Shown: positions 62,676-63,999 of the stretch, one piece after another | How positions within the stretch are numbered: position 1 is the stretch's first letter | How the letters are laid out: each line of letters starts with the position of its first letter | Origin: Thiobacillus sp. | GTDB taxonomy: Bacteria > Pseudomonadota > Gammaproteobacteria > Burkholderiales > Thiobacillaceae | DNA: 64,000 nucleotides | Assembly: GCA_030679915.1 (NCBI GenBank) | Contig: JAUXRY010000030.1 | Coordinates: 1 to 64,000, forward strand | Reading direction: 5' to 3' | Notes under the pieces: model-generated | Told to the model about the DNA's origin: nothing | Database searches by the model: none | Seen by the model: only the letters and a program-made list of their open reading frames with translations | Position numbers and translations under genes: made by a program

Positions 62676-63062
62676 ATGTCTCACTACCATGCAGTTGTCT
62701 GGCTCGATCACAACGAAGCCCACGTCATCCACATCAGCCCCGACGATGTCGAAAAATCAGTGGTGAGCCCGGCTGAGCCACATCGCAATCTCCACCGCAA
62801 GCGCGGCTCGGTCAGCGGTAGCCGCCAGCCTGAGGACCAGCATTACTTTCATGAAGTCGTGGAAGCCATGAAAGGCGCCACCGAGGTGCTGATCGTCGGG
62901 CCCGGCCAAGCCAAGCTCGAACTGATCAAGCATATTCACGCCCATGACCATGACGTTGCCAAACAGGTGATTGGGGTGGAAACCGTCGACCACCCGAGCG
63001 ATGCTCAACTTGTGGCCTATGCTCGAAAGTATTTTGTGACCAAGGATCAAATGTTGTCGTAA
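62676..63062 (+). CDS. eRF1-domain-like small protein
   Basis: 128 aa, AACGAAAGGGAAA upstream. Begins HYHAVVWLDHNEAHVIHI and has a central TEVLIVGPGQAKLELIKHI, the pattern of small bacterial proteins annotated as translational machinery or eRF1-domain-like. Rich in His. Function is not established. Stands alone between acs and a terminator. Confidence 0.75.
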   Translation: MSHYHAVVWLDHNEAHVIHISPDDVEKSVVSPAEPHRNLHRKRGSVSGSRQPEDQHYFHEVVEAMKGATEVLIVGPGQAKLELIKHIHAHDHDVAKQVIGVETVDHPSDAQLVAYARKYFVTKDQMLS

Positions 63063-63175: not shown

Positions 63176-63327
63176 GTTGCCCGGTCAAGTGCGTGCGGTG
63201 GCGGATCATGATGGTTGGCACGCTGTGTGGAACAGACGCAATGACCTAAGCCATTGAAGTGGTTTGGTATTGAAATTTTGTTCGGGGCAAAAAAGTGCTC
63301 AAGTATGTCGAAATATCGTCGTTACAG

Positions 63328-63410
63328 TTGGTAACCTGTATAAGGGCAAACCCATCGTGAGATGGCGACGCAAAGCGTCCGGTCTTGGTAAAAGACAGCG
63401 AGGCTGCCAT
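63328..63410 (+). ncRNA. GEMM-I cyclic dinucleotide riboswitch aptamer
   Basis: Matches the c-di-GMP-I (GEMM) consensus along its length. GGGCAAACC opens helix P2, CCATC-GTGA-GATGG, whose GTGA is a GNRA tetraloop. GACGCAAAGC is the conserved junction. GTCCGG begins the tetraloop-receptor arm, closed by GTCTT/AAGAC, and AGCGAGG lies before the closing strand. P1 pairs GGTAAC (63330-63335) with GCTGCC (63403-63408). The aptamer ends 70 bases before the ATG at 63481. No terminator hairpin lies between, so any control is likely at translation. Whether it prefers c-di-GMP or cGAMP cannot be told here. Confidence 0.88.
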
Positions 63411-63480
63411 GGAGTGAATTCATATATGGTTGCTGCGTTGTGGCCCGGGTTCAGGCAAATGATTGATCCAAGGAGCCGCC

Positions 63481-63933
63481 ATGTCCCACAACTGCCTATT
63501 CCCTGTTCGTTCAACAGATAGCCGTCATTGCTACCGTACCGGTAGTGGTCTGGGCTTTACGCTCAGCCTGACATTGGTTGCCATCCTTGCCGGATATGCC
63601 GGGCTTAGCCCTGCGGCATCAGTCAACAACCCTGACAGGACAATTGAAACTCCGGCCAGCACTGGCACCGTAGTCAGTTGGGATAAAGCCCGCTTGCTGG
63701 TGGCGTCGCGTGCAGGCTTGCCCGACGCTGAATTCGAAAAACGCTGAAGACGCATAACCTGGCCCCCGAGGGCCATTGCCATCCTGGATACCGGGTTAGT
63801 CGGGACTTAACCTGATTGGGCTGCCAACAGGGTTCCGGGACGGAATGTCTACAACAACAATGCGGTGACCTGCGTGCACGGGAACGGCGTCGCTGTCTCA
63901 GGCACGGAGGCAATGCCTCCAGCAAGAGTGTGA
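63481..63933 (+). pseudogene. Broken, internally deleted S8 (subtilisin-like) peptidase gene
   Basis: An AAGGAG site and ATG at 63481 open an 88-codon frame with a hydrophobic export segment (LGFTLSLTLVAILAGYAGL) ending RAGLPDAEFEKR. The next frame continues LKTHNLAPEGH, like the S8 N-terminal region (RAGLxxAEFxKxLKxH). Further on, other frames give AIAILDTGLVGT (catalytic-Asp block) and ANRVPGRNVYNNNA with VHGNGVAVSG (catalytic-His block). A large part between is gone and there are several stops. The 88-residue first frame may still be secreted as a peptide. Confidence 0.7.
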
Positions 63934-63972
63934 CGATTTATCTTTACGTAAGATTCGCCTGCCGCTGCAGGC

Positions 63973-63999
63973 TCCAAGCGCCTTTTGGGCGTTTTTTTA
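63973..63999 (+). terminator. Terminator after the S8 remnant
   Basis: CCAAGCGCC, TTTT, GGGCG then a run of seven T residues. Ends the remnant's transcription unit at the window edge. Confidence 0.7.

What the first reader, a model, noticed from the sequence alone, without database searches (positions are those of the whole stretch)
63328..63933. GEMM-I riboswitch kept intact in front of a wrecked secreted-protease gene
The aptamer has every main GEMM-I element, including P1 pairing with a wobble, the GNRA tetraloop and the GACGCAAAGC junction. The gene it controls is disabled by frameshifts and a large deletion. Either decay is very recent, or the aptamer still controls the short 88-codon exported peptide or acts as an RNA in its own right.
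Basis: partly seen in the sequence, partly recalled or inferred. Interest (0 to 1): 0.75.

Follow-up and report, generated by a model that had tools for sequence, protein, structure and literature searches.

The report
Riboswitch-controlled signal peptide outliving its protease
In a Thiobacillus bacterium, an RNA sensor for the signal molecule c-di-GMP sits in front of a protease gene of which mostly the front end is left, and comparison with related species suggests that this front end, a short membrane peptide, is what evolution is keeping.

Summary
The aptamer is real: Rfam c-di-GMP-I, 53.4 bits against a cut-off of 35. It is less intact than described: 3 of 20 helix pairs are non-standard, the most among 30 aptamers compared from this site in the genus. 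The gene behind it is a truncated S8 protease; the S8 body is found in 13 of 56 Thiobacillus genomes. Decay is not very recent: genome G012 carries the same wreck. In 21 genomes the leader (~46 codons, an extended signal or anchor peptide) is at this site with no S8 body detected; 16 of these have the aptamer and 5 do not. In four pairs of relatives that both lack the body, leader codons show 17 synonymous against 5 non-synonymous changes, whereas the tail shows no significant constraint. Best reading: a FliA-like promoter, the riboswitch and a small membrane peptide form a unit that outlives, or exists without, the protease; the peptide is its most persistent part and the aptamer is expendable. 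Peptide function, ligand binding and direction of control are untested, and the order of gain and loss rests on an uneven tree.

The parts
63299..63325 (+). FliA (sigma-28)-like promoter, TCAAGTAT-N11-GTCGTTAC, just upstream of the aptamer
   Evidence: A pattern of this form is found upstream of the leader ORF in 32 of 34 loci; no shuffled control was run. The match to the FliA consensus (recalled) is partial, 6/8 and 5/8 by eye. A FliA-family sigma gene lies in a flagellar-looking cluster of this genome.
63335..63411 (+). c-di-GMP-I (GEMM-I) riboswitch aptamer with a canonical ligand pocket and three broken helix pairs
   Evidence: RF01051 53.4 bits; RF03167 47.3, below its cut-off; alignment, pair counts and folding; 0 of 82 positions (63331-63412) differ from G012.
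63412..63480 (+). 5' untranslated region with AAGGAG ribosome-binding site at 63470-63475; expression platform not resolved
   Evidence: Sequence. 0 of 68 positions (63413-63480) differ from G012. No consensus structure over 36 upstream regions.
63481..63618 (+). Leader codons 1-46: positively charged N-terminus and one hydrophobic stretch (extended signal or anchor peptide)
   Evidence: Profile of 24 leaders, this one among them, matches at 1.8e-26. 2 synonymous and 0 non-synonymous changes against G012. Hydropathy and charge.
63619..63747 (+). Tail codons 47-88 and stop: remnant of the protease prodomain region, drifting
   Evidence: 1 synonymous and 5 non-synonymous changes against G012; homologous to the start of the S8 precursor in G007.
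63748..63940 (+). Remnant beyond the stop, including an S8 piece; the rest of the protease is missing
   Evidence: DNA match of 63773-63915 to the intact gene of G007, 81%; 4 of 193 positions differ from G012.
63979..63998 (.). Hairpin with T-run, terminator-like, between the remnant and the convergent FMN-reductase gene
   Evidence: Read directly from the sequence; no tool run on it.

Best explanation
The aptamer belongs to a Thiobacillus cassette: a FliA-like promoter, a c-di-GMP-I riboswitch, and an ORF whose first ~46 codons make a charged N-terminus plus one membrane-spanning or signal segment. In 13 genomes these codons are the front end of a secreted S8 protease with Ig-like domains; in 21 others the leader stands at the same site without a detectable protease body. 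In the window's lineage the body was clearly lost. Shown: the aptamer hit, the shared wreck, synteny, the many copies without S8, and codon-level constraint on the leader with no significant constraint on the tail. Inferred: that the body was lost (not gained) elsewhere too; that the leader acts as a small membrane protein by itself; that FliA (motility) and c-di-GMP (surface life) jointly set its expression; and that in the window's lineage the switch still works, perhaps weakly. Whether c-di-GMP turns it on or off could not be read from the sequence.
For: The leader profile hits 36 of 56 genus genomes. The S8 catalytic-domain query hits 13 of 56 at 1e-20, each on the contig that carries the leader (G022 has one further fragment on another contig). 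That leaves 21 with the leader at this site and no S8 hit, and 2 (G019, G032) with it in another gene. Over four such pairs with a shared short form, leader codons changed at 17 of 142 synonymous and 5 of 410 non-synonymous sites (p 3e-7); the tail at 14 of 91 and 22 of 239 (p 0.12). Adding the second copies of G029/G055 gives 23 of 177 against 9 of 513. Between G000 and G012, promoter plus aptamer plus UTR differ at 0 of 184 positions against 13 of 233 in the upstream spacer (p 8e-4). The promoter form is kept in 32 of 34 loci, including the 5 without an aptamer. Genus-wide the aptamer helices covary: 9 of 20 pairs change on both sides, reached by 0 of 500 shuffles.
Against: Visible S8 remnants were seen only in G000/G012, G003 and G014; for the other short copies loss rather than absence rests on an uneven tree. 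The G000/G012 pair alone has only 2 synonymous changes in the leader. The remnant behind it differs at 4 of 193 positions, not significantly more than 0 of 184 (p 0.12). Some lineages without S8 look relaxed: G007 against G003 has 4 synonymous and 8 non-synonymous leader changes, G014 against G054 has 7 and 6. The window's aptamer has broken pairs and a competing hairpin, and its folding energy is not unusual against shuffles (z -0.74). No conserved expression platform was found. The window peptide has no Pfam or NCBIfam hit, one weak PHROG hit of unknown function at 0.058, and the leader profile has none in PDB. No flagellin was found in this 80%-complete genome. Recombination could also explain the low divergence of the unit.
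Confidence: 0.6

Rival explanations
1. Plain relic: the protease died and the whole front end, aptamer included, is decaying at its own pace; constraint seen in other species does not apply here.
For: Three broken pairs and the lowest bit score of 30 aptamers, shared with G012. The gap between native fold and minimum energy is larger in aptamers without S8 than in S8-linked ones (means 8.4 and 4.5 kcal/mol; p 0.003 for all rows, 0.05 with one hand-picked row per clade). Five loci without S8 have no recognisable aptamer against none of 13 S8 loci (p 0.13; 0.04 with the second copies of G029/G055). The G003 lineage looks relaxed.
Against: The two groups of aptamers do not differ significantly in broken pairs (p 0.79) or Rfam bits (p 0.28). 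Leader codons 1-46 show no amino-acid change against G012 while the tail shows 5. Promoter, aptamer and UTR differ at 0 of 184 positions. Constraint holds in other pairs without S8.
Confidence: 0.25
2. The leader ORF was a small gene first, and an S8 body was joined to it later in some lineages; in the window's lineage the added body has since decayed.
For: Most short copies show no S8 remnant. Fitch parsimony needs 11 changes without fixing their direction.
Against: The S8 bodies are alike (71-78% identity to the query) and sit at one syntenic site, which suits a single early joining followed by losses. Truncated S8 pieces are seen in three lineages.
Confidence: 0.06
3. The aptamer RNA acts in its own right, as a c-di-GMP-binding non-coding transcript like merRNA of Bdellovibrio.
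For: A FliA-like promoter lies just before the aptamer. A massively expressed c-di-GMP-riboswitch RNA without a conserved downstream ORF is described in Bdellovibrio (PMC3627812, passages read).
Against: Here a conserved ORF with a ribosome-binding site follows. The ORF occurs without the aptamer in 5 loci, and no case of the reverse is listed (sign test p 0.06). Constraint acts at codon level.
Confidence: 0.06
4. The wreck is an assembly or sequencing error in a draft genome.
For: The genome is 79.7% complete in 42 contigs.
Against: A second assembly, G012, carries the same truncation and stop with its own substitutions. No S8 body is found elsewhere in either incomplete genome at 1e-20.
Confidence: 0.02

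Closest known systems
c-di-GMP-I (GEMM-I) riboswitch, Rfam RF01051
   Same: Fold, junction, GNRA loop and ligand-contact columns; above the gathering score.
   Different: Three helix pairs broken in the window's copy. In species without S8 the ORF behind it is a bare leader plus short tail rather than a full protease gene.
c-di-GMP-I-GGC riboswitch, Rfam RF03167
   Same: In 25 of the 30 aptamers from this site this family gives the best hit above its cut-off.
   Different: The window is below the cut-off (47.3 against 59). All 30 aptamers keep A, not G, at the contact that I recall as defining the GGC variant.
merRNA of Bdellovibrio bacteriovorus (PMC3627812)
   Same: A c-di-GMP riboswitch expressed in a motile phase.
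   Different: The authors found no conserved downstream ORF, and merRNA is not marked as having a FliA promoter in their Table 2 (passages read). Here a conserved ORF follows.
Extended signal peptide regions, such as those of autotransporters (recalled, not tested)
   Same: Long conserved charged N-region before the hydrophobic segment.
   Different: Different sequence, found only in Thiobacillus in the searches made, and kept without a passenger protein.

Membership tests
c-di-GMP-I riboswitch (RF01051) | Covariance-model score above the curated gathering score | tested here: met
   53.4 bits against 35.
c-di-GMP-I riboswitch (RF01051) | Ligand contacts G20, A47, C92 (numbering recalled) | tested here: met
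   The corresponding columns are invariant in 30 of 30 aptamers, the window included.
c-di-GMP-I riboswitch (RF01051) | Helices formed by standard pairs | tested here: inconclusive
   17 of 20 pairs standard in the window, the lowest count of 30 rows. Genus-wide 95.9% of cells pair, with covariation; one of five measures, further pair types, is not beyond shuffles (45 of 500).
c-di-GMP-I riboswitch (RF01051) | Binds c-di-GMP and changes expression of the downstream gene | not testable with these tools
   Needs in-line probing and reporter assays.
c-di-GMP-I-GGC (RF03167) | Score above gathering score | tested here: not met
   47.3 against 59.
Peptidase S8 (PF00082) gene | Intact catalytic domain with Asp, His and Ser motifs | tested here: not met
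   The window ORF has no Pfam hit. In 11 S8-bearing relatives scanned, Asp and Ser motifs were found in 11 of 11; my His pattern found the motif in 8 (plus one off-target match in G011), and GHGT is visible in the other three in the translations.
merRNA-like non-coding riboswitch RNA | No conserved ORF downstream | tested here: not met
   Leader ORF matched in 36 of 56 genomes.
merRNA-like non-coding riboswitch RNA | Very high abundance as a short transcript | not testable with these tools
   No RNA-seq at hand.
FliA (sigma-28) promoter | TAAAGTTT-N11-GCCGATAA consensus (recalled) | tested here: inconclusive
   TCAAGTAT-N11-GTCGTTAC, right spacing, partial -10; the form is found in 32 of 34 loci.

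The most novel reading that the evidence does not exclude
A signal peptide has become a gene of its own. In Thiobacillus the first ~46 codons of a secreted protease have been cut loose many times (up to about 14 by one tree), and live on as a small membrane protein under joint control of a flagellar-type promoter and a c-di-GMP riboswitch.
Probability: 0.4. Interest if true: 0.68.

Novelty: new variant of a known kind. Interest (0 to 1): 0.52.

Why it matters
Signal peptides are usually treated as disposable. Repeated loss of an enzyme with retention of its signal or anchor peptide and c-di-GMP control would be a natural series for how small membrane proteins arise, and would give a target for a riboswitch that otherwise looks orphaned. 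It also shows that a riboswitch in front of a pseudogene need not be dead. A named strain with the form lacking S8 exists: T. thioparus DSM 505 (record; its contig length, 235284, equals that of G048 contig 13).

Tried and rejected
Considered and rejected: assignment to c-di-GMP-I-GGC (below cut-off); a relocated protease elsewhere in the genome (no S8 body at 1e-20; the genome is incomplete); a plasmid or viral origin (no match to the locus DNA or the leader in plasmids; 5 pattern matches but none confirmed in viral contigs); a conserved terminator or anti-terminator after the aptamer (consensus fold energy 0.0 over 36 upstream regions, G041 left out); leader relatives outside the genus (of 250 genomes sampled in the order 8 match at 0.01, one of them the window's own; the best other is 3.1e-5, partial, in a longer ORF that looks unrelated). 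The named-genome scan used one peptide pattern only, which the window's own leader does not fit, so it can miss variants. A second promoter-pattern match in the genome lies inside another gene and looks like chance. Literature searches: c-di-GMP-I-GGC and variants, riboswitch with FliA, Thiobacillus with c-di-GMP riboswitches, orphan riboswitch or pseudogene, GEMM with T. denitrificans, riboswitch with secreted protease, merRNA-type RNAs. No listing described this locus; they cover only the open library and I saw listings, not texts, apart from passages of PMC3627812 and PMC12452182.

Limits of my own analysis: the boundaries 63279-63637 were chosen after seeing the differences, so I rely on the annotated segments. 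The four pairs in the selection test were chosen because both members lack S8 and share the short form. G014/G054 were left out of the main count because their short forms look independent (with them: 24 of 180 against 11 of 510). The first tree used one neighbour gene in a wrong frame; it was dropped and the tree rebuilt. Several genomes have partial data and low-support nodes, and the Dollo count of 15 splits G008 and G027, whose tails are homologous, so 14 is fairer. Bit scores, the one-row-per-clade list and the counts were typed by hand from earlier calls. The listing is cut short.

Full report
WHAT IS THERE. The window is contig C11 of a 2.52-Mb, 79.7%-complete assembly of the genus Thiobacillus. 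Rfam finds one RNA in the window above threshold: c-di-GMP-I at 63335-63411, 53.4 bits against 35. The only other copy found in this assembly is on contig C25, 68.4 bits, upstream of a 741-aa ORF. The ORF behind the window's aptamer starts at 63481 after AAGGAG and stops after 88 codons. An intact form is a 610-aa S8 protease with prodomain and Ig-like domains in G007. The window keeps the front of the gene and, after about 220 missing bases, a further piece to 63915.

HOW INTACT THE APTAMER IS. The three ligand contacts (numbering recalled from Vc2) and the core are present and invariant among 30 aptamers from this site. Genus-wide the helices are supported: 95.9% of cells paired and 9 of 20 pairs with changes on both sides, reached by 0 of 500 shuffles, though the count of further pair types is not unusual (45 of 500). 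The window's copy, identical in G012, has three non-standard pairs, the most of 30 rows, and the weakest native energy, -15.3 kcal/mol. Its minimum-energy fold has a local GACGC/GCGUC hairpin in place of the core, but in none of the 30 rows is the native fold the minimum, so this alone says little. Its Rfam score is the lowest of the 30. Aptamers without S8 do not differ significantly from S8-linked ones in broken pairs (p 0.79) or bits (p 0.28), only in the energy gap (p 0.003; 0.05 with one row per clade). 'Kept in outline, with damage' is fair. Whether it binds is open.

AGE OF THE WRECK. G012 matches 661 bases of the locus at 97% and shares the truncated gene and stop. The neighbouring acs gene differs at 113 of 1968 positions between the two, so the wreck predates their split. 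The relative G003 has a different truncation with a 152-aa ORF.

THE SITE ACROSS THE GENUS. The usual order is acs, a 128-aa gene (missing in some), the cassette, and a convergent FMN-reductase gene. Of 56 genomes, 36 carry the leader by profile. 13 have the S8 catalytic domain at 1e-20, each on the leader's contig. 21 have the leader at this site and no S8 hit; two (G019, G032) have it in another gene without an Rfam hit. 20 have no leader; of 13 such sites read between both flanking genes, 9 hold only a spacer of under 140 bases and 4 a putative exported-protein gene, and one search lists no aptamer at the site in any of the 20. Of the 21, 16 have an aptamer above threshold and 5 (G020, G028, G030, G031, G045) have none even at permissive settings. 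G034 has both an S8 copy and a second aptamer-linked leader; G029 and G055 have second leaders without an aptamer hit. A tree of neighbour proteins gives 15 Dollo losses (14 if G008 and G027 share one) or 11 Fitch changes of the S8 body among 34 genomes. Support is uneven, and S8 remnants are visible only in G000/G012, G003 and G014, so loss rather than later gain is an inference elsewhere.

WHAT SELECTION SEES. Four pairs without S8 that share their short form (G000-G012, G008-G027, G005-G048, G016-G044) show 17 synonymous and 5 non-synonymous changes in leader codons 1-46 (sites 142 and 410, p 3e-7), but 14 and 22 in the tail (sites 91 and 239, p 0.12). Adding the second copies of G029 and G055 gives 23 and 9. 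Constraint is of the same order in S8-bearing pairs (G046-G050 7 and 1; G029-G055 6 and 2). Against this, G007-G003 (4 and 8) and G014-G054 (7 and 6) look relaxed. Between G000 and G012 the annotated promoter, aptamer and UTR differ at 0 of 184 positions, against 13 of 233 upstream (p 8e-4) and 17 of 366 downstream (p 0.001), but not significantly less than the 193-base remnant alone (4 differences, p 0.12); the aptamer by itself is 0 of 82 (p 0.02 against upstream).

HOW IT PROBABLY WORKS. A FliA-like promoter with correct spacing but a partial -10 is found in 32 of 34 loci, the five without an aptamer included. A FliA-family sigma gene sits in a flagellar-looking gene cluster of this genome (gene names recognised by eye), although no flagellin was found in this incomplete assembly. 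The leader has net charge +2 to +3 in its first 25 residues, then one hydrophobic stretch, which suits a signal anchor with its N-terminus inside (inference). I infer that the RNA senses c-di-GMP and tunes expression of a small membrane peptide. No conserved platform was found, so on or off is unknown.

WHERE IT STANDS. The aptamer is a member of a known family. The unusual part is a signal or anchor peptide kept, with its regulation, in the absence of the enzyme. That the ORF occurs without the aptamer, and not the reverse, argues mildly against the RNA being the item kept (5 to 0, sign test p 0.06). The closest precedent for a stand-alone c-di-GMP-riboswitch RNA is merRNA of Bdellovibrio (PMC3627812; passages only), which lacks a conserved ORF.

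Noticed in passing
G000 contig C25:47960-48048 (L033 7961-8049, minus strand): A second, stronger c-di-GMP-I aptamer (68.4 bits) stands before a 741-aa ORF, with a near-consensus FliA-like promoter (TCAAGTTT-N11-ACCGATAG) upstream. The pairing of FliA-like promoter and c-di-GMP aptamer thus occurs twice in this genome.
   Followed up: partly
L117 (G019) and L118 (G032): The leader-like N-terminus heads a 274-277 aa protein at another locus, without an Rfam aptamer hit and with an 'RMRGG' motif reminiscent of a double-glycine leader.
   Followed up: partly
Sites of G006, G013, G023, G047 (L212, L209, L211, L210): At the same syntenic site these genomes carry an exported-looking protein with a C-terminus reminiscent of PEP-CTERM sorting signals instead of the cassette.
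   Followed up: no
Genus Thiobacillus: Many of the genomes listed have two FliA-family sigma factors above the curated cut-off; this genome shows one in the (cut) listing. Division of labour between them is unknown.
   Followed up: partly
window 62676-63062: Conserved 128-aa gene upstream with only a weak eRF1_2 Pfam hit (E 0.013, below cut-off); found in 44 of 56 genus genomes.
   Followed up: no
L248 (G279): Partial leader-profile match (3.1e-5) to the hydrophobic segment of a longer ORF in another family; probably unrelated.
   Followed up: partly
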